Source: Corallococcus sp. AS-1-6
Lineage (GTDB): Bacteria > Myxococcota > Myxococcia > Myxococcales > Myxococcaceae
DNA length: 64,000 nucleotides
Assembly: GCF_020037015.1 (NCBI RefSeq)
Contig: NZ_JAIQDE010000017.1
Location: forward strand, 62,001-126,000
Direction of reading: 5' to 3'
Shown here: positions 52,774 through 59,964 of the stretch, piece after piece
How the letters are laid out: the number at the start of each line of letters is the position of its first letter
Numbering within the stretch: the stretch's first letter is position 1
Position numbers and translations under genes: made by a program
Notes under the pieces: model-generated
Database searches by the model: none
What the model was told of the DNA's origin: nothing
The model's input: only the letters and a program-made list of their open reading frames with translations

Positions 52774-53052
52774 TTGAACCTGCCCCACGCGGCTTCCGGC
52801 GTCATCGTCCAGCAGCAAGGTGAAGCCTTCTTCCTCCTGGATACGGAGGGCGGTGAGGTCTTCCGGGTGAACGAGACCGCCGCGCGCATCTTCGAGCTGT
52901 GCCAGGGCGACACGTCCCTGGAGGGAGCGGTGGCGTCGCTGGCGCTCCGGCTGGGCGCCGCGGGCCAGGAGGAGGCCATCCGCGCGGACGTCCAGCGCAC
53001 CGTGACGCAGTTCCAGGAGCTGGGGCTGTGCGAGCCCTCGCGCCCCGTCTGA
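52774..53052 (+). CDS. PqqD-family RiPP recognition protein
   Basis: 92 residues from TTG 52774; AAAGGGG at 52761-52767 is 6 bases upstream. PqqD proteins bind precursor leader peptides (RRE fold) and present them to modifying enzymes. The order of structural elements fits: FFLLDTEGGEVFRVNETAARI (strands then helix 1), then LEGAVASLALRLG, and RADVQRTVTQFQELGLCEP (helix 3 and end). Most PqqD relatives have the L-x-N-x-x-A-x-x-I/L pattern seen here as VNETAARIFEL. It is the first gene of the RiPP-type cluster and has its own promoter. Confidence 0.85.
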   Translation: MNLPHAASGVIVQQQGEAFFLLDTEGGEVFRVNETAARIFELCQGDTSLEGAVASLALRLGAAGQEEAIRADVQRTVTQFQELGLCEPSRPV

Positions 53053-53291: not shown

Positions 53292-53393
53292 ATGTACATC
53301 CAGTCCCAGATCGTCCGCGTGTCCGCGTCGTCCGACAAGTGCACCTGCTCCAACGGCATGGTCATCGCCGCGACGACCGTGAGCGCGGAGTAG
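53292..53393 (+). CDS. Putative RiPP precursor peptide 1
   Basis: 33 residues; AGGAG at 53280-53284 is 7 bases before ATG 53292. The N-terminus MYIQSQIVRVSASSDKCTCS leads to NGMVIAATTVSAE. It is a near-duplicate of the next small gene in its first 23 residues (20 identical). The conserved D-K-C-T-C-S-N-G-M block contains the only two Cys, in a CxC arrangement. The tail is short and ends in AE in both copies. There is no signal peptide and no membrane helix. With a PqqD-like protein, an MNIO and a protease nearby, it is best read as a modification substrate. Confidence 0.75.
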   Translation: MYIQSQIVRVSASSDKCTCSNGMVIAATTVSAE

Positions 53394-53442
53394 TCGCTCC
53401 CGTCGTTTCCCAACTCCAGACATCCATCCCAGGAGAACCACC

Positions 53443-53538
53443 ATGTACATCCAGTCCGAGATCGTCCGCGTTTCCGCCGCCACCGACAAGTGCACCTGCT
53501 CCAACGGCATGGGCACCGTGATCGTCATCGCGGAGTAA
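53443..53538 (+). CDS. Putative RiPP precursor peptide 2
   Basis: 31 residues; AGGAG at 53431-53435 is 7 bases before ATG 53443. It shares with precursor 1 the block MYIQSxIVRVSAxxDKCTCS and NGM, then diverges (GTVIVIAE). The differences are Q6E, S13A and S14T in the first 23 residues. The two short tails differ while the CTC motif is fixed, which suggests that modification targets the motif. It is followed directly by the hairpin at 53550-53581 and then the enzyme operon. Confidence 0.75.
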   Translation: MYIQSEIVRVSAATDKCTCSNGMGTVIVIAE

Positions 53539-53549
53539 CGCGTTTCACG

Positions 53550-53581
53550 GCCGGGAGGAGGGCCTCGGTCCTCCTCCCGGC
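53550..53581 (+). terminator. Strong hairpin after the precursor genes (terminator or attenuator)
   Basis: The left arm GCCGGGAGGAGG (53550-53561) and right arm CCTCCTCCCGGC (53570-53581) form a perfect 12-bp stem with an 8-base loop (GCCTCGGT), 12 bases after the second precursor's stop; TGTGTCTTT follows, a weak T-run. A partial terminator here would make precursor mRNA more abundant than enzyme mRNA, as is common in RiPP operons. Confidence 0.7.
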
Positions 53582-53618
53582 TGTGTCTTTCCCCGAAAGC
53601 GCCGACACGCCCCCGCCC

Positions 53619-54242
53619 ATGCTGCCCGCATCCACGCAGTTGTTGCTCTTCACCCAGGCGGACGTCGGCGGACACGCGCTCTTTCGAGTCGTGCCCGTGG
53701 AGGTGTCCGTGCGCCCCGGCCAGGGACGGCTGTGGACGGACGTGTCGCGGGGCAACGCCTTCACCCCCGCGTGGCAGGACCACGCGCGCCACCTGTCGGC
53801 GGTGGGCCGCGCGCGCTACGCGCTGCCGTGGGAGCAGACCGACCTGCACGTCTCGCCGCGCGGCCGGAACGTGACGCTGGATGGCCGGAGCGCGTCGCTG
53901 CCGCTGTTCGTCGCGTGGGTGGCGCTGCTTTCGGGCCTGCCGCTGCCGTCGCCCTTCCTGGGCACGGGCGTGGCGCTGGAGGCGCATGGGGAAGCGCTCG
54001 CGCCCGCGCCGCGCGAGTTCCTCCAGGGAAAGCTGGGCGTGGCGCAGGCCTACGTGACGCAGGTGTTTCCGCGGGCGGGGAGGGTGGCGGTGTTCGTGCC
54101 GGAGGGCAGCGCCTTCGACGCGGCGCCCCTGACGGCGCTGGACGTGCGGCCGGTGCCCACGCTCACGAAGGCGGTGGAGGCGGTGCTGGGGCTGAAGCCT
54201 CGCGCCGCCGGAGCCGACGCCGGGGAAGGGGTGGGGGGATGA
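53619..54242 (+). CDS. Stand-alone Lon (S16) protease-like domain
   Basis: 207 residues from ATG 53619 (a GTG at 53583 is in frame). Residues about 75-190 align with the Lon proteolytic domain: DGRSASLPLFVAWVALLSGL corresponds to Lon DGPSAGIAMCTALVSCLTG, then GTGVAL, GKLGVA and VRPVPTLTKAVEAVLGL, matching Lon's IHPVKRIEEVLTLAL. The Lon Ser679 position is Ser91 and the Lys722 position is Lys138 (47 versus 43 residues apart, with identical spacing up to the shared TG). The AAA+ part of Lon is absent. A peptidase activity, perhaps leader removal from the precursors, is inferred. The stop overlaps the MFS start by ATGA. Confidence 0.7.
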   Translation: MLPASTQLLLFTQADVGGHALFRVVPVEVSVRPGQGRLWTDVSRGNAFTPAWQDHARHLSAVGRARYALPWEQTDLHVSPRGRNVTLDGRSASLPLFVAWVALLSGLPLPSPFLGTGVALEAHGEALAPAPREFLQGKLGVAQAYVTQVFPRAGRVAVFVPEGSAFDAAPLTALDVRPVPTLTKAVEAVLGLKPRAAGADAGEGVGG

Positions 54243-55549
54243 TCCGCCAGGGCGTGGGGGCCATCCGGGAGATGTATGGGCTGACGCGGGGGCTGGGGAA
54301 CCTGCGGGTGATGCTGGGCTCGGGGCTGTTGGGCATGGCGGCGTCCGGCCTGCTCAACCCGGTGATGCCGTTGTACCTGCGCTCGCGCGGGCTGGGCTTC
54401 CAGGAGATTGGCGCGCTCTACACGGTGGGGGCGCTGCTGCCCATCTTCGTGCAGCCGGTGCTGGGGGCGCTGTCGGACCGCCATGGGCGCAAGCCCTTCG
54501 TGGTGGGCCTGTCGCTCGTCACGTCGCTGATGGTGCCGGCGGTGGCGCTGGTGGACGACCCGCAGCCGCTCGCCGCCGTGATGATCCTCAAGATGCTGCT
54601 GTCGCGCAGCGCGGCGCCGGTGTCCAACGCGATGGTGGCGGACTTCGCGCCCGCGAAGCAGCGCGCCACGCTCTTCGCGCTGCTGGATGCCACGTCCAAC
54701 CTGGTGTTCGTCGCCGCGCTGTTCGCGTCCTCCGCCGTCATCCGCGCGCTGTCGGTGGCGGGCACCTTCTTCCTGGCGGGGGGCCTGTTCCTCGCGGGCA
54801 GCCTGCTGCTGCTGGGGCTGGATGAACCGGCGCGGCCTCCGCGCGCGGAAGGAGTGCGTGGGGGCGCGGGGTGGGGCCTGGTGTTCCGGGGGCTGTGGTC
54901 GCCGTTCACCTACGTGAAGGAGCGGCCGGGCGCGGCGGCGCTGTTCCTCTGGCAGTTCTTCTTCACCTTCGCGCTGGCGCTGTTCCCCACGTACCTGCCG
55001 CTGTACGCGGTGGAGCTGGGCGCGCCCCGGGAGGCGGTGGGGCCGCTGGTGGCGGCGTCGTGGCTGACGTACGCGTTCGCGCAGCCCTTCGGCGGGCGGC
55101 TGTCGGACCGGCTGTCCCGGCGCGTGGGCCTCATTGTGCCGGGCCTCGCGGGCATGGCGGTGATGGCGGCGGTGCTGGGGGCCGCGGGGTGGCTGCCGGA
55201 CGGCGCCGCGCTGGTGACGCTGGTGGGGGCCTGGGTGCTGCTGGCCATCCCCGACGGCCTGCACCGCTCCTCCGCGTCCGCGCTGGTGGTGGAGCAGTCC
55301 CCGGCGCCCTCCGAGCGCGGCCGGTTCATGGGCGCGCTGGGCGCCTGCGGCGCGCTGGCCTCCGTGCTCGCGCCCGTCACCTACGGCTTCGTCGCGCAAG
55401 CGGCCGGCATTGGCTTCACGTTCCTTCTTTCCTCGGTGTCCCTCGTGCTGGCGCTCGGCTGTGTGTCGCGCGTGCGCGAGGCGTCCTCACCCGTCACACC
55501 TCCACCGGCCCCCGTGGCCGCCCTCACCCCCACCTCGGAGCCCGGATGA
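54239..55549 (+). CDS. MFS transporter
   Basis: 436 residues from ATG 54239, overlapping the Lon-like stop by 4 bases. About twelve membrane helices in two halves. The conserved MFS loop between helices 2 and 3 is GALSDRHGRKPFVVG, and its repeat after helix 8 is GGRLSDRLSRRVGLI. Exporters of small molecules and peptides in this family are common, so it probably exports the mature product across the inner membrane. A Pro/Thr-rich tail of about 25 residues ends the protein. Confidence 0.9.
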   Translation: MIRQGVGAIREMYGLTRGLGNLRVMLGSGLLGMAASGLLNPVMPLYLRSRGLGFQEIGALYTVGALLPIFVQPVLGALSDRHGRKPFVVGLSLVTSLMVPAVALVDDPQPLAAVMILKMLLSRSAAPVSNAMVADFAPAKQRATLFALLDATSNLVFVAALFASSAVIRALSVAGTFFLAGGLFLAGSLLLLGLDEPARPPRAEGVRGGAGWGLVFRGLWSPFTYVKERPGAAALFLWQFFFTFALALFPTYLPLYAVELGAPREAVGPLVAASWLTYAFAQPFGGRLSDRLSRRVGLIVPGLAGMAVMAAVLGAAGWLPDGAALVTLVGAWVLLAIPDGLHRSSASALVVEQSPAPSERGRFMGALGACGALASVLAPVTYGFVAQAAGIGFTFLLSSVSLVLALGCVSRVREASSPVTPPPAPVAALTPTSEPG

Positions 55550-57675
55550 GCCCCCTTCGCCACGTGTGTCGCTGGGGCACCGCGCTGTTGGCCGCGCTGG
55601 TGCCCACGCTGGGACACGCTGATTCAACGTACAAGGTCACCGCGACGCGGACGCAGGACGCCATCACCATCGACGGCAAGGGGGATGAGCCCGCGTGGCA
55701 GGCGGCCCCGGAGATTTCCGGCTGGTACCTCACGCGCGTCAACTACGGCAAGCCCGCGCCGGACGACACCAAGGTCCGCATCCTCTACGACCAGGACAAC
55801 CTCTACTTCCTCTTCCACTGCATCGACTCCAAGCCGGAGCGCATCACCGGCTACACGGTGCAGAACGAGGGGTTCCTCCACCAGGAGGACAACATCACCA
55901 TCATCCTGGACACGTTCCTGGACCACCGGAACGCGTACTACTTCTGGACCAACCCGCTGGGCGTGCGCACCGACGGGCGCATCGTGGATGACGGCGAGGC
56001 GTTCTCCACCAACTGGCGCGGCGAGTGGGAGACGAAGTCCACCATCGTGAAGGACGGGTGGATTTCAGAGGTGCGCATCCCGTTCGCCAACTTCCAGTTC
56101 GAGACGAAGGATGAAATCTCCTTCGGCATGCTCCTGGACCGCGAACAGTCGCGCAACCAGGAGTGGAGCAACTGGACGCCGGACGGCGTCAACAGCGCGA
56201 AGGTGAGCCGCTACCCGCACCTGGAGGGGCTCAAGGGCATCAAGCCGCGCAGCATCTTCAGCATCACCCCGTACGTGGCCACCACGGTGGCGCTCAAGAC
56301 GACGGACGACCGGGGCGTCTTCCGTCCCAACGTGGGCGCGGACGCGCGCATCGACCCGACGCCCTGGCTGGCGGTGAAGCTCACCGCCAACCCGGACTTC
56401 AGCGACGCGGAGGCAGACCAGAGCTTCCTCCTGCTGGACACGGACCAGCCGCTCCTGCCGGAGCGCCGCGCGTTCTTCACGGAGAGCGAGCACCTCTTCA
56501 TCGCGCCCATCAACGTCTTCACCTCGCGCCGCATCGCGCTGCGGCCGCATGACCGGGTGTGGGGCGGCCTGCAGCTCACCGGCAAGCTGGGGGGCTTGAG
56601 CTTCTCGATGATGGACGTGCAGCACCGCGACCTCACCGGCCGGGACGCCAACGGCCGTGAGGTCTTCGAGAACGTCAACTCCGGCGTCATCCGCTTGCAG
56701 CAGGACATCGGCAAGCGGTCGATGATCTCCCTGGTGGCGCTCAACCGCAGCGGGCGGGGCGGGCTGTTCGGGGACTCGGACTTCCAGACGGTGGGCGTGG
56801 ACGGCAACTTCCACGTCTTCGAGGAGTTCTTCATCCAGGCGCAGGCGCTGAAGAGCTGGAGCCCGCTGGGCAACGAGGACTCGGACGCGTACCACGTGGG
56901 CCTGCACCGCTTCGACACGCTGTCGGAGTTCTGGTTGCAGTTCGAGGACATCGGGAAGAACTACGCGAACCCGCTGGGCTGGACGCCGGTGGTGGACAAG
57001 CAGGGCTACAACTCGCGCCTGTTCCTGAACCCGTTCCCCGGGTGGCGCTTCCTGCCCCGGCTGGACGTGACGTGGGACTCGCTGTGGCGCCGCAACCACG
57101 AGGGCGAGCGCACGCGCTGGCGCAACCGCCTCAACGTGCAGCCCTACCTGCACCACGACTTCGCGCTCTACCTGGAGGGCATCTACGACGACAACCTGGG
57201 CTTCCGGGACCGGCTGGGCACGTTCGGCTTCACCCTGTTCCCGCACGACTGGCAGAGCTACACGCTGACCGCCGTCGCCGGCCGCTTCCTGGGCGGGGAG
57301 ATCCGCGGCTTCAACGGCGCGGCGAACATCAAGATTGGCCCGCACATCGTCGCGCGCTTCAGCGGCTTCTACACGCGCAACTTCAACGTGCCGACGAACA
57401 GCGACCTCTACGGCACGTCCGGGGACGGCTACAGCTTCTCCGGCTACGCGCAACTGCGTTACCACTTCAGCCCGGACCTCTACGCGCGCCTGACCTTGCA
57501 GAAGGGCGGCGTGTACGAGCTGGCGGACTACAACTCCGTGAAGGGCACGTTCCTGGACGCGATGGTGGGGTGGCACTACCGCCAGTGGAGCGACATCTTC
57601 CTCGTCTACACGGATCAGCCCTTCGGCGGCTCCCAGGAGCGGCGGATCCTCTCGAAAATCTCCTTCAACTACTGA
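55546..57675 (+). CDS. DUF5916 outer-membrane protein with CBM9-like N-terminal domain
   Basis: 709 residues from ATG 55546 (ATGA overlap with the MFS stop). A Sec signal (WGTALLAALVPTLGHA) precedes a CBM9-like domain (about 30-215; ITIDGKGDEPAWQAAPEI, then VRILYDQDNLYFLFHCIDS). The remaining 490 residues are the DUF5916 beta-barrel type: repeated strands (FSMMDVQHRDLTGRD, NPFPGWRFLPRLDVTWDSLW, GFTLFPHDWQSYTLTAVAG) ending in SKISFNY. Members are found in Myxococcota and Bacteroidota with no assigned role. In this operon it may act as an outer-membrane channel or receptor for the product; this is inference. Confidence 0.85.
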   Translation: MSPLRHVCRWGTALLAALVPTLGHADSTYKVTATRTQDAITIDGKGDEPAWQAAPEISGWYLTRVNYGKPAPDDTKVRILYDQDNLYFLFHCIDSKPERITGYTVQNEGFLHQEDNITIILDTFLDHRNAYYFWTNPLGVRTDGRIVDDGEAFSTNWRGEWETKSTIVKDGWISEVRIPFANFQFETKDEISFGMLLDREQSRNQEWSNWTPDGVNSAKVSRYPHLEGLKGIKPRSIFSITPYVATTVALKTTDDRGVFRPNVGADARIDPTPWLAVKLTANPDFSDAEADQSFLLLDTDQPLLPERRAFFTESEHLFIAPINVFTSRRIALRPHDRVWGGLQLTGKLGGLSFSMMDVQHRDLTGRDANGREVFENVNSGVIRLQQDIGKRSMISLVALNRSGRGGLFGDSDFQTVGVDGNFHVFEEFFIQAQALKSWSPLGNEDSDAYHVGLHRFDTLSEFWLQFEDIGKNYANPLGWTPVVDKQGYNSRLFLNPFPGWRFLPRLDVTWDSLWRRNHEGERTRWRNRLNVQPYLHHDFALYLEGIYDDNLGFRDRLGTFGFTLFPHDWQSYTLTAVAGRFLGGEIRGFNGAANIKIGPHIVARFSGFYTRNFNVPTNSDLYGTSGDGYSFSGYAQLRYHFSPDLYARLTLQKGGVYELADYNSVKGTFLDAMVGWHYRQWSDIFLVYTDQPFGGSQERRILSKISFNY

Positions 57676-57696: not shown

Positions 57697-58539
57697 ATGA
57701 CCTCCGCCGACCCGCAGAGCCTCAAGCGCCGCTACGACGAGGTGTCCCCGAAGTACGACCAGGGCGCGCCGGACGCCACGGCCATCAAGCTGTTCTGGCT
57801 GACGTACGAGCACCTCACCTGGAAGCCCGTGGAGGCGCTCCTGCCGAAGGACGGCACGGCCTGGCGCGTGCTGGACGCGGGCGGCGGGGGCGGCAAGTTC
57901 GGCACGCGCTTCGCGGAGGCCGGTCACCACGTCACCGTGCTGGACATCTCACCGGGCATGCTCGACGGCGCGAAGGCGCAGTTCGCCGCGAAGGGGCTGC
58001 TGGACCGCGCCGCCTTCGTGGAGGGCAACGTCGCGGCGCTGGAGCTGCCGGACGCGGCCTTCGACCTGGTCTTCTGTGAAGGCGATCCGGTGTCGTACTG
58101 CCTGGACGCGTACCCGCGCGCGGTGAAGGAGCTGGTGCGCGTGGCGAAGCCGGGCGCGCCGGTGGTGCTGGGCGTGGACAACCGCTACGAGGCGTTCTCC
58201 GGCTACCTGAAGCTGGGCAAGCCGCAGGAGGCCTTCCGCACGCTGCACGACGGCCGCACCACGTGCCCGTACGGCCTGCCTGTGCACGCCTTCACGGTGC
58301 GCGAGCTGGAGCGCGCGGTGGCGGACGCGGGCGCGGAGCTGCTGGAGGTCTTCGGCAAGCCGGTGATGTTCTTCGACATGCTCAAGGCGATGGCGGCCTC
58401 GCACGGCGGCACCGCGGAGAAGCCGTGGGACGCGTGGGCCGCGCGCGAGGAGATATTGGCGTTGCAGGAGAAGCTGGCGCACGAGGGCTTCGCCGTCCTG
58501 GGGCAGCACCTCCAGGTGATGGCGCGGCGCAAGGGCTGA
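57697..58539 (+). CDS. Class I SAM-dependent methyltransferase
   Basis: 280 residues. Motif I is WRVLDAGGGGGKFGTRFAEA near residue 56, then VTVLDIS with the acidic residue for the SAM ribose, and AFDLVFCEGDPVSYCL. It is closest to small-molecule or Ubi/CmoA-like enzymes, and no target domain can be named. It starts 21 bases after the DUF5916 gene and ends 4 bases before the MNIO gene, so it is part of the operon. In a RiPP setting it may methylate the modified peptide; in chryseobasin, known MNIO ChrH itself does that, so a separate enzyme is notable. Confidence 0.85.
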   Translation: MTSADPQSLKRRYDEVSPKYDQGAPDATAIKLFWLTYEHLTWKPVEALLPKDGTAWRVLDAGGGGGKFGTRFAEAGHHVTVLDISPGMLDGAKAQFAAKGLLDRAAFVEGNVAALELPDAAFDLVFCEGDPVSYCLDAYPRAVKELVRVAKPGAPVVLGVDNRYEAFSGYLKLGKPQEAFRTLHDGRTTCPYGLPVHAFTVRELERAVADAGAELLEVFGKPVMFFDMLKAMAASHGGTAEKPWDAWAAREEILALQEKLAHEGFAVLGQHLQVMARRKG

Positions 58540-58543
58540 CGCC

Positions 58544-59374
58544 ATGGGCCTCCCCTTCCTGGGCGTGGGGCTCAGCTACCGCTGGGACCTCAATCCGCAC
58601 CTGGCGCGCGGCAACCCCGGCGTGGACTGGCTGGAGGTGACGCCCGAGCACTTCCTGCCGCTCACGCCGGACTCGGAGCGGCGGCTGGAGCTGCTCGCGA
58701 AGCGCTACCCGCTGGTGGGCCACAGCCTGGAGCTGTCGGTGGGCTCGGACGGCGTGGACGCGCCCGGCTACCGCGAGGGCTTGAAGCGCATCCGTCACGT
58801 CACGAAGAGCGTCTGGCACGGGGACCACCTGTGCTTCACGCGCGTGGGCAACCTGCCCCTGCGCGCGCTGACGCCGGTGCCGCTGACGGAGGAGGCGGTG
58901 GCCACGTGCGTGCGCAACGTGAAGGCGGCGCAGGCGGACCTGGACGTGCCCTTCGTGGTGGAGAACATCGCGTATCTCTTCCACACGCCGCTCAACACGC
59001 TGGATGAGGCGGAGTTCCTGCGCCGCGTGGTGGAGGGCGCGGACTGCGGGCTGCTGCTGGATTTGCACAACCTCCACTGCAACGCGGTCAACCACGGGTT
59101 CGACCCGTATGCCTTCCTGGACCGTCTGCCATTGGAGCGCGTGGTGCAGGTGCACCTGGCCGGCGGCGTCACGGTGGAGGGGCTGAGATTGGACAGCCAC
59201 TCCGCGCCGTCGCCGGAGGAGGTGTGGCGCTTGTTGGAGTACGTGGCGCCACGCAGCCCGGTGCGCGGGGTGAACTTCGAGATGGACAGCGGCTTTCCTC
59301 CCTTCTCGCGGCTGGTGGAGGAGCTGGCCCGCGCGCGCGCCATCCTCCAGCGCTGCGGTGCGAGCGCGGCATGA
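58544..59374 (+). CDS. DUF692/MNIO multinuclear non-heme iron oxidative enzyme
   Basis: 276 residues. Known members (MbnB, TglH, ChrH) use two or three irons and O2 to modify Cys or other residues in RiPP precursors. Visible family blocks: GVGLSYR, DWLEVTPEHF, GHSLELSVGS (His60), WHGDHLCF, VVENIAYLF (Glu140, Asn141), LLLDLHNLHCNAVNHGFDPY (Asp173, Asn176, His184), VVQVHLAG (His204), LDSHSAP (Asp217, His219) and NFEMDSGFPPF (Glu246, Asp248). These fill the usual metal-ligand positions, so the enzyme looks active. The stop overlaps the partner gene by 4 bases. Confidence 0.92.
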   Translation: MGLPFLGVGLSYRWDLNPHLARGNPGVDWLEVTPEHFLPLTPDSERRLELLAKRYPLVGHSLELSVGSDGVDAPGYREGLKRIRHVTKSVWHGDHLCFTRVGNLPLRALTPVPLTEEAVATCVRNVKAAQADLDVPFVVENIAYLFHTPLNTLDEAEFLRRVVEGADCGLLLDLHNLHCNAVNHGFDPYAFLDRLPLERVVQVHLAGGVTVEGLRLDSHSAPSPEEVWRLLEYVAPRSPVRGVNFEMDSGFPPFSRLVEELARARAILQRCGASAA

Positions 59375-59964
59375 GCTACCCACGAACCTTGGAGGTCCTG
59401 GCGCGGCTGCACGTGGATCCCCGCTTCCGTGAAGCGTGGCGCCGCGATGCCCCCGGCGCCCTGGCCCCGCTGGGCCTGACGCCGTCGGACGCGGAGGCGC
59501 TCCAGCGGGTGGAGCCGGTGGTGGTGGAGCGCGCCGGCCGGATGATGGACTTCCACCGCACCGAGCGCGTGCGCGAACAGCTCCCCTGGGTGGATGAAGC
59601 GAAGCGGCCGGAGCTGGGATGGCTGCGCGCGCGCTTCCTCCAGGACGTGCCGCCGGAGGTGCTCAACCGCGAGGAGGCCATCGCCTACTGCCGCTTCCTG
59701 GAGGCCGGTGAGCACGCGAAGCTGCCCGCGTACGTGCCTCAGTTGGCCCGGTGCGAACGGCTGCGCCTGTCGCTCGCGTGGGGGCTCGTCCCCATGCCGG
59801 CGTCAGGGCTGTTCGTGGAGTCCTTCGACCACCCGGTGCTCACGCTGCTCGCCGCGCTGGACGCGCCGGGCTGGCCCCCGGTGGAGCCGAAGCCCACGCG
59901 CGTGGAGTACCTCAAGGTGCCCGGCCTGCCCGCCGTGATGCCTCGCGAGCTGCCGTCACCTTGA
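59371..59964 (+). CDS. Probable MNIO partner protein
   Basis: 197 residues from ATG 59371 (ATGA overlap with the MNIO stop). In MbnB/MbnC and TglH/TglI, the second protein is needed for activity and binds the peptide. The N-terminus MSYPRTLEVLARLHVDPRFR is followed by FREAWRRDAPGALAPLGLTP and helical segments, as in partner proteins and Nif11/LigA-like small domains. The remainder is helical with few motifs (LEAGEHAKLPAYVPQLARCE). The pairing with the MNIO rests on gene overlap and length more than on sequence. It is the last gene of the cluster. Confidence 0.65.
   Translation: MSYPRTLEVLARLHVDPRFREAWRRDAPGALAPLGLTPSDAEALQRVEPVVVERAGRMMDFHRTERVREQLPWVDEAKRPELGWLRARFLQDVPPEVLNREEAIAYCRFLEAGEHAKLPAYVPQLARCERLRLSLAWGLVPMPASGLFVESFDHPVLTLLAALDAPGWPPVEPKPTRVEYLKVPGLPAVMPRELPSP

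What the first reader, a model, noticed from the sequence alone, without database searches (positions are those of the whole stretch)
53292..53538. Tandem precursor-like peptides with identical DKCTCSNGM motif and variable tails
Seen: two short genes, each with AGGAG at the same spacing, share 20 of their first 23 residues and then differ in sequence while both end in AE. The only Cys are in the fixed CTC. Inference: the CTC block is the modification site and the tails vary.
Basis: partly seen in the sequence, partly recalled or inferred. Interest (0 to 1): 0.9.

Follow-up and report, generated by a model that had tools for sequence, protein, structure and literature searches.

The report
Multi-copy modified-peptide operon in predatory myxobacteria
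Soil-dwelling predatory bacteria carry runs of tiny genes whose peptides share one fixed cysteine-containing half but have fast-changing tails, next to one fixed set of enzymes that probably chemically modify, cut and export them, so a single enzyme set may make many related natural products.

Summary
The two peptides (53292-53393, 53443-53538) belong to a family found only in one family of myxobacteria: 95 units in 22 of 195 Myxococcota genomes, 2-9 per genome. The first 23 residues are nearly fixed (Y2, R9, A12, D15, C17, C19, M23 in 88 of 88); tails change faster than synonymous sites next door. The main arrays lie in one operon (whole in 19 of 22; three contigs end): PqqD, peptides, unknown protein, MFS, predicted outer-membrane barrel, methyltransferase, MNIO, partner. 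The partner folds like TglI. The unknown protein has the Lon (S16) protease fold, Ser-Lys dyad invariant in 22 of 22. One metagenome-assembled genome fuses seven units in one ORF: a single MYNKPQ, then seven units. This marks residues 1-6 as leader and Glu/Gln-6|Ile-7 as the likely cut. Best reading: a new RiPP variety; the MNIO oxidises the C-x-C site, the Lon-like protein releases the units, MFS and barrel export them. Product chemistry (thiooxazole-like?) and role (soft-metal binding?) are inferred. Novel: a possible Lon-fold RiPP protease and a variable-tail, polyprotein-capable MNIO substrate.

The parts
52774..53052 (+). PqqD-family protein, discrete RiPP recognition element (TTG start)
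   Evidence: PF05402 E 2e-13, 50.9 bits over cut-off 23.4; present beside 22 of 22 main arrays, frame broken late in one, L052
53280..53284 (+). AGGAG ribosome-binding site of peptide 1, 7 nt before ATG
   Evidence: sequence
53292..53393 (+). Precursor peptide 1: leader MYIQSQ, conserved I7-M23 block with C17-T-C19, variable tail ending AE
   Evidence: leader border inferred from the polyprotein
53431..53435 (+). AGGAG ribosome-binding site of peptide 2, 7 nt before ATG
   Evidence: sequence
53443..53538 (+). Precursor peptide 2: leader MYIQSE, same block, different tail ending AE
   Evidence: leader border inferred from the polyprotein
53546..53585 (+). Strong G+C hairpin just after the last peptide gene; probable partial terminator or mRNA 3'-end protector
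   Evidence: a strong fold in all 22 loci examined, directly after the stop in 18 of 22 (best window, no shuffle control); 8 of 14 pairs with a both-sided change in 18 aligned sequences
53619..54242 (+). Stand-alone Lon (S16)-fold protein with Ser91-Lys138 dyad; candidate maturation protease
   Evidence: only PDB sequence matches up to E 10 are Lon, 14 of 14, best E 0.067; model vs E. coli Lon proteolytic domain Foldseek E 1.2e-10, Z 16.7, 2.9 A over 174; S91, K138, T116, G117 invariant in 22 of 22
54239..55549 (+). MFS transporter, inner-membrane export candidate
   Evidence: PF07690 E 2.6e-44
55546..57675 (+). CBM9-like/DUF5916 protein with signal peptide-like start and C-terminal SFNY; predicted outer-membrane beta-barrel
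   Evidence: PF06452 E 5.3e-8, PF19313 E 6e-6; barrel and location inferred from the sequence ends, no model made
57697..58539 (+). Class I SAM methyltransferase
   Evidence: PF13649 E 4.9e-19
58544..59374 (+). MNIO (MbnB/TglH/ChrH family) modification enzyme
   Evidence: PF05114 E 2.1e-76; eight presumed metal-ligand positions aligned with the same residue in 3BWW and TglH, Asp248 with Asp in 3BWW
59371..59964 (+). MNIO partner protein, PME-type 2 like
   Evidence: no DUF2063 hit; model vs TglI 8hi7_A Foldseek E 1.2e-4, Z 11.2, 3.6 A over 190; vs NGO1945 3dee Z 9.4, 3.4 A over 128

Best explanation
The operon makes a family of short RiPPs. Each small gene encodes a six-residue leader, MY..[ASP][EQ], followed by a unit I.RV.A..DKC[TS]C...M-tail-[EQ]. 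PqqD and the TglI-like partner present the peptide to the MNIO, which oxidises the fixed C-x-C site, most likely the Cys after Lys, by four-electron chemistry of the thiooxazole kind; the methyltransferase may methylate the product. The stand-alone Lon-fold protein cuts after Glu/Gln-6 (and between units when they are fused), and the MFS protein with the outer-membrane barrel moves the products out. One enzyme set serves 2-9 precursor units per genome whose tails diversify, so the fixed half is the working head (possibly a soft-metal site, C-x-C...M) and the tail tunes specificity. Shown: genes, conservation, co-occurrence, folds of two predicted models, invariant dyad, unit borders in the polyprotein. 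Inferred: every reaction, the cut site, export and the role.
For: Family and copy number: 95 units in 22 of 195 Myxococcota genomes, four genera of one family (the 23rd match, G102, set aside). The Lon-like gene occurs in the same 22 of 195 at E<1e-99; 12 weaker matches (E 7e-7 to 0.04) lie in frames of 563 residues or more in 10 of 12, probably ordinary Lon proteins. The MNIO orthologue (E<1e-160) is in 23 of 96 family genomes: the same 22 plus G019, whose contig begins inside the MFS gene. Flanking genes are shared by Corallococcus and Citreicoccus loci but not by L045 and L048-L052, which bounds the operon at PqqD and partner. Polyprotein in L050: one MYNKPQ then seven units; Glu before I.R at 5 of 6 inner junctions. 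72 of 77 distinct single peptides end in Glu/Gln (6.3% expected from inner tail letters) and 77 of 77 have Glu/Gln at 6. Lon fold and dyad. Partner fold. The MNIO has Asp248 where 3BWW has the Asp that I equate with the proposed catalytic base Asp249 of FonB (PMC13097082). The four closest other MNIOs (42-46% identity) carry a C-terminal domain that the partner profile matches in 2 of 4 (hmmsearch 1.9e-8, 4.9e-8 for a set of four) and have putative precursors such as CISCACGSGCLCGC. Tail pN 0.24 and 0.29 exceed operon pS 0.08-0.17 in the same Corallococcus.
Against: No mass or structure of any product. The Lon-like family does not reach Pfam's cut-off (best E 0.092, 2 of 22 members) and hhalign gave only probability 7.6% with E 0.0012; RadA, ComM and BrxL share the fold and are, from memory, not proteases. 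The residues that I equate with FonB's specificity positions differ (Arg16 to Trp14, Phe250 to Ser249). Asp248 aligns with Gln in TglH. Lys16 is Ser/Thr in 7 of 88 peptides. A six-residue leader is unusually short. The secondary arrays have no modification genes nearby. The polyprotein is seen in one metagenome-assembled genome only. In L052 the PqqD frame is broken. The barrel shows no raised dN/dS (0.20, 0.34), against tail-receptor coevolution. Head dN/dS is near 1 in the closest strains.
Confidence: 0.6

Rival explanations
1. The fixed 23 residues are a leader that stays behind; the product is the short variable tail, and the CTC block only tethers or senses (for example binds metal or forms a disulfide) during processing.
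For: Conserved half plus hypervariable half is the usual leader/core picture; tails have dN/dS above 1.
Against: In the polyprotein the I.R...CTC...M block is repeated in every unit, whereas only MYNKPQ occurs once; a leader need not repeat seven times. The four closest other MNIOs also have putative C-x-C precursors.
Confidence: 0.15
2. The MNIO acts on the C-terminal Glu/Gln, as ApyH does (recalled) on a C-terminal Asp, and the Cys serve another purpose.
For: C-terminal Glu/Gln in 72 of 77 distinct peptides.
Against: The polyprotein has one C-terminus but seven CTC blocks; Glu/Gln also sits at position 6 of 77 of 77 distinct peptides, which a cut site explains; the ApyH model scores 126.8 bits against a cut-off of 400.
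Confidence: 0.08
3. The products are metal-buffering peptides like bufferins or captophorins that keep copper in check; the tails are just spacers under relaxed constraint.
For: MNIO scores best with the BufB and HvfB models (191.9 and 184.2 bits, below cut-offs); invariant C-x-C...M; in L053 the secondary array lies 3' of a ZIP transporter gene on the same strand.
Against: No signal peptide by eye; no DUF2063, DoxX, sigma-factor or DUF2282 match among the eight operon proteins scanned and the two peptides; tails keep a Glu/Gln end and a narrow composition; the operon has its own MFS and barrel genes.
Confidence: 0.25
4. The Lon-fold protein is not a protease but a scaffold or recognition domain, and trimming is done by a housekeeping peptidase.
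For: Fold shared with RadA, ComM and BrxL domains; Pfam cut-off not reached; no experiment.
Against: Ser91 and Lys138 align with the Lon dyad and are invariant in 22 of 22, with the whole LDGRSASLPLFV block fixed.
Confidence: 0.25

Closest known systems
Captophorins: fontiphorin, oxazolin, bufferins (MNIO + PME1, 5-thiooxazole; PMC13097082, PMC12452194)
   Same: MNIO with the presumed metal and catalytic-base positions; Lys-Cys in most precursors; in L050 repeated units in one chain
   Different: No Sec signal peptide by eye, partner is PME-type 2 not DUF2063, two presumed specificity residues differ, discrete PqqD, Lon-like protein, MFS, barrel and methyltransferase added; variable tails
Pearlin pathway TglH/TglI
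   Same: Partner model matches TglI; MNIO aligns with TglH
   Different: No PEARL-type enzyme among the operon proteins; Cys are encoded inside the peptide, not added at its end
Methanobactin MbnABC
   Same: Short Cys precursor, MNIO plus partner; secretion here only inferred
   Different: MbnB model far below cut-off; partner resembles MbnC only weakly (Z 6.0, 5.1 A over 142); several variable precursors
Myxobacterial ChrH-like system (Archangium ArlA; passages of PMC12636315)
   Same: Myxobacterial MNIO RiPP
   Different: There a CPACGMMM motif and the ChrH clade; ours scores 62.9 against a ChrH cut-off of 600
Lasso-type discrete PqqD RREs
   Same: Stand-alone PqqD, best NCBIfam match the lasso PqqD model though below cut-off (31.3 of 70); the leader Y-x-x-[ASP] recalls the W/Y/LxxP/L/I type named in a passage of PMC12710340
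   Different: No lasso cyclase or lasso-type protease in the operon; Pro at the fourth place of the motif in 2 of 89 ORFs only

Membership tests
MNIO-modified RiPP | MNIO enzyme (PF05114) in the gene cluster | tested here: met
   257.1 bits over cut-off 25
MNIO-modified RiPP | Partner protein beside the MNIO | tested here: met
   TglI/NGO1945-like predicted fold, gene directly after MNIO
MNIO-modified RiPP | Precursor residue oxidised by the MNIO | not testable with these tools
   needs mass spectrometry
Captophorin/bufferin | DUF2063 (PME1) partner | tested here: not met
   no Pfam DUF2063 match in 19 of 19 partners at E<=1, within HMMER's filters
Captophorin/bufferin | BufB or HvfB equivalog model | tested here: not met
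   191.9 of 310 and 184.2 of 360 bits
Captophorin/bufferin | 5-thiooxazole in the product | not testable with these tools
   chemistry
Methanobactin | MbnB equivalog model | tested here: not met
   20.6 of 325 bits
Chryseobasin | ChrH equivalog and CPxCGxG motif | tested here: not met
   62.9 of 600 bits; no Cys-Pro in the 89 ORFs printed
PqqD family | PF05402 match | tested here: met
   50.9 bits over 23.4
PME-type 2 partner (PMC12452194) | Structure related to NGO1945/TglI without the DUF2063 signature, encoded after an MNIO | tested here: met
Lon-type (S16) protease | Fold of the Lon proteolytic domain | tested here: met
   (predicted model, mean pLDDT 81.9)
Lon-type (S16) protease | Catalytic Ser and Lys | tested here: met
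   S91 and K138 invariant in 22, aligned with DGPSAG and the second Lys of GGLKEK of the genome's own Lon (weak alignment)
Lon-type (S16) protease | Pfam Lon_C gathering score | tested here: not met
   best E 0.092, 2 of 22 members match at E<=1
Lon-type (S16) protease | Proteolytic activity | not testable with these tools
   needs assay

The most novel reading that the evidence does not exclude
A new RiPP class in which a stand-alone Lon-fold Ser-Lys protease, without an ATPase domain, is the maturation enzyme, and a fixed oxidised C-x-C...M warhead is combined with positively diversifying tails from arrays or a natural polyprotein, giving each predator strain its own set of secreted effector or metal-capturing peptides.
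Probability: 0.4. Interest if true: 0.85.

Novelty: new variant of a known kind. Interest (0 to 1): 0.73.

Why it matters
MNIO enzymes do unusual chemistry on peptides, and the landscape survey I read (PMC12452194, sections 13, 17, 18) collected the ORFs that precede MNIO genes. Here the ORF just before the MNIO is a methyltransferase and the precursors lie about 5 kb upstream in 31-33 codon genes, so such a survey could miss them. The polyprotein suggests leader and unit borders without an experiment, which makes the protease hypothesis directly testable. A Lon-fold maturation protease would be new to RiPPs as far as my searches go (the main text of the review PMC10885120 holds no 'Lon'). Natural arrays with one fixed head and many tails are also a ready substrate library.

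Tried and rejected
A sigma-70 promoter scan found none (0, shuffles 0.2), and its terminator scan was no better than shuffles (2 against 2.9), so the hairpin rests on its recurrence and covariation alone. Pfam and NCBIfam named neither peptide nor the window's Lon-like protein. A sequence search of the partner profile against the PDB gave only a chance match (XRCC1, E 1.8), so its assignment rests on the model. Receptor-tail coevolution was considered and is not supported by dN/dS of the barrel. A literature search for the motif letters returned 7 papers, none on RiPPs by title. Whether the adjamnio families of PMC12452194 (alignments in supplements, not available here) hold this peptide could not be checked. 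My first regular expression failed (one position too many) and was corrected. G102's weak match was not followed. In one search, 12 of the 34 genomes matched only above E 0.09 and were dropped as chance, as were such extra matches in the other 22. The scan of genome contigs used two short exact peptide patterns, found 12 loci and may miss distant relatives and some carriers.

Papers: PMC12452194 abstract, outline, passages, sections 13, 17, 18; PMC13097082 passages and sections 7, 13, 14; PMC12636315, PMC12710340, PMC12257519 passages; PMC10885120 term search without a hit; all others search listings only. 'Not in print' means in the open PMC library only. Recalled, not from a call: E. coli Lon residue numbers, which MNIO residues bind metal, that RadA/ComM/BrxL are not proteases, that ApyH acts on a C-terminal Asp, and general RiPP logic.

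Full report
OBSERVATION. The two genes are as described: 53292-53393 and 53443-53538 on the plus strand, each 7 nt after AGGAG, 20 of 23 first residues identical, different tails ending in AE, Cys only in CTC. The window lies in G000:C8:62001-126000 of a 9.5 Mb genome, whose only two matches at E<=0.001 are these.

FAMILY. A search with peptide 1 in 96 genomes of the family gave 34 genomes at E<=1; 22 have matches below 1e-6 and the other 12 only above 0.09, dropped as chance. A profile of 22 peptides against 195 Myxococcota genomes gave 23 genomes, of which 22 are clear (95 units) and one, G102, is a 15-residue match at E 0.003 that I set aside. My regular expression found 89 ORFs in 24 arrays: 88 single units of 30-39 residues and one ORF of seven units. 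In one genome (L039) six of nine peptides are identical with a 128-base period, a recent tandem amplification.

ANATOMY. Over 88 single units, positions 1, 2, 9, 12, 15, 17, 19 and 23 (M, Y, R, A, D, C, C, M) never vary; position 6 is always Gln or Glu; Lys16 holds in 81 of 88. 63 end in Glu, 19 in Gln, 6 in Cys; inside tails Glu plus Gln make 6.3% of 759 residues; of 77 distinct peptides 72 end in Glu/Gln (binomial 7e-80, peptides not independent) and 77 have Glu/Gln at 6. The six ending in Cys are the secondary arrays L053 and L054, which also have Ser/Thr for Lys16 and one more Cys inside the tail; in L053 the array lies 3' of a ZIP-family transporter gene (PF02535, 1.7e-27) on the same strand. 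No operon protein matches either contig (tblastn E<=1e-3).

POLYPROTEIN. The MY..[ASP][EQ] segment occurs once, the rest seven times. I infer that residues 1-6 are the leader and that cutting follows Glu/Gln-6. Stand-alone peptides end in the same residue type, as expected if units and single genes interconvert.

OPERON. PqqD, peptides, Lon-like protein, MFS, CBM9/DUF5916 protein, methyltransferase, MNIO and partner occur in this order in each main locus whose contig is long enough: PqqD and Lon-like in 22 of 22, the last four genes in 19 of 22. In the other three (L036, L042, L043) the contig ends in the MFS gene, and the MNIO orthologue is on another contig (G017, G027, G023). In L052 the PqqD frame departs from the others after residue 57. 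The histidine kinase before and the gene after are shared by the Corallococcus and Citreicoccus loci with enough flank but not by L045 or L048-L052, which bounds the unit. The Lon-like gene is found at E<1e-99 in exactly the 22 peptide genomes of 195; in two of them the profile match runs on past a TGA. The MNIO orthologue is found in those 22 and in G019 (23 of 96); G019's contig starts within the MFS gene, so the missing half may be an assembly gap. G029 has no orthologue at that level (best 1.7e-65). In the genome collection, the Lon-like profile (two short exact patterns) found 12 loci, all titled Corallococcus, Myxococcus, Pyxidicoccus, Citreicoccus or Myxococcaceae MAG.

LON-LIKE PROTEIN. 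No Pfam or NCBIfam match for the window protein. A profile of 22 orthologues matched 14 PDB sequences up to E 10, all Lon, best E 0.067. The AlphaFold2 model (pLDDT 81.9, pTM 0.82, 13 sequences) matches the E. coli Lon proteolytic domain (Foldseek E 1.2e-10; Z 16.7, 2.9 A over 174 residues). Other Lon-fold domains (RadA, ComM, BrxL) score Z 15-16, so fold alone does not show proteolysis. Ser91 of DGRSAS lies at the Ser of DGPSAG, and Lys138 of LQGKL at the second Lys of GGLKEK in the genome's own Lon (hhalign E 0.0012 but probability only 7.6%). Both are invariant in 22. I recall these as S679 and K722 in E. coli.

MNIO AND PARTNER. The MNIO (PF05114 257 bits) falls below the cut-offs of all five NCBIfam models it matches, best BufB and HvfB. 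In the alignments with 3BWW and TglH, H60, H95, E140, D173, H204, D217, H219 and E246, which I take from memory for metal ligands, have the same residue in both; H175 is His in TglH and Asn in 3BWW. Asp248 falls on Asp in 3BWW (ERDFNFPPF) and on Gln in TglH; by its context I equate it with the proposed catalytic base Asp249 of FonB, whose neighbour Phe250 and Arg16 (PMC13097082) would then correspond to Ser249 and Trp14, both invariant here. The partner model (pLDDT 87.1) matches TglI (E 1.2e-4; Z 11.2, 3.6 A over 190), NGO1945 (Z 9.4, 3.4 A over 128) and, weakly, MbnC (Z 6.0, 5.1 A over 142). It fits the PME-type 2 description of PMC12452194, whose abstract reports a correlation between signal peptides in precursors and partner type; that signal-less precursors go with type 2 is my reading. 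I looked at 16 other MNIO loci picked from the hits (all from the window's family) and at one further MNIO of the window's genome. The four closest (42-46% identity; L096, L097, L099, L108) have a C-terminal extension; the partner profile matches it in 2 of the 4 (hmmsearch 1.9e-8, 4.9e-8, for a set of four), and single partners match all four weakly by BLASTP. Their putative precursors, the ORFs just upstream, end in C-x-C-rich motifs such as CISCACGSGCLCGC. Seven others have, by eye, EGSCG/GCG-type lipoprotein-like putative precursors; the remaining six differ or show none. In the tree our MNIOs form one group (81/99), but the branching among groups is not firmly resolved.

SELECTION. Nei-Gojobori counts, codons 3-23 as head: dN/dS 0.11 (Myxococcus/Pyxidicoccus, 36 units) against tail 1.24; Corallococcus first copies 0.60 against 1.36; all single units 0.58 against 1.50; seven close Corallococcus peptide 1 0.71 against 7.3 (5 synonymous and 77 non-synonymous differences over 15 pairs); peptide 2 1.44 against 2.4. 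Tails were compared only at equal length and without realignment, and pairs are not independent. Operon genes in the same seven strains have pS 0.08-0.17 and dN/dS 0.07-0.35. So tails change faster than synonymous sites next door, which fits diversification better than mere drift, but a formal site test is missing. The near-neutral head ratio in the closest strains rests on few changes.

RNA. A hairpin follows the last peptide gene: a strong one was found in 22 of 22 loci, directly after the stop in 18 (best window, no shuffle control); in 18 aligned sequences 8 of 14 pairs show both-sided changes. It probably raises the ratio of peptide to enzyme message; that is inference.

MECHANISM AND NOVELTY. 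Best reading as stated in the explanation section. The chain MNIO plus partner plus Cys precursor is established for other RiPPs; the PqqD, the Lon-fold protein, the fixed head with variable tails and the polyprotein are what differ. I found no description of this peptide or operon in the searches listed under Tried and rejected. I rate it a new variant of a known kind; if the Lon-like protein is shown to be the maturation protease, the protease would be a first for RiPPs as far as I could search.

Noticed in passing
L053:6711-7139 and L054:6689-7118 (minus strand): Secondary arrays of three paralogues each, with DSCTC/DTCTC, an extra Cys in the tail and Cys at the C-terminus, no operon gene on the contig; in L053 the array is 3' of a ZIP metal-transporter gene on the same strand.
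   Followed up: partly
L096, L097, L099, L108: Another myxobacterial MNIO system: MNIO with a C-terminal extension that looks like a partner domain, with a 65-75 residue putative precursor containing VETEEFKLEMLDCG and a CxC-rich end such as CISCACGSGCLCGC.
   Followed up: partly
L103 (G000:C2:144800-155800): A second MNIO in the window's own genome preceded by a lipoprotein-like putative precursor ending EKGAEGSCGAGSCGAGSCSGKK, perhaps oxazolin/bufferin-like.
   Followed up: no
L039:9861-10998 (minus strand): Nine peptide genes, six with identical products at a 128-base period: recent tandem amplification.
   Followed up: no
L106 and L109: Further MNIO loci with different putative precursors (TCELDNDLLDTVTGGGG...ECPTCASG type; a RRNFMKTVV-type protein with CPNCGLGG).
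   Followed up: no
L052:11339-11566 (minus strand): PqqD gene whose frame departs from its orthologues after residue 57, although the rest of the operon is present: frameshift or assembly error.
   Followed up: no
window 53546-53585: Covarying G+C hairpin between the peptide genes and the enzyme genes.
   Followed up: partly
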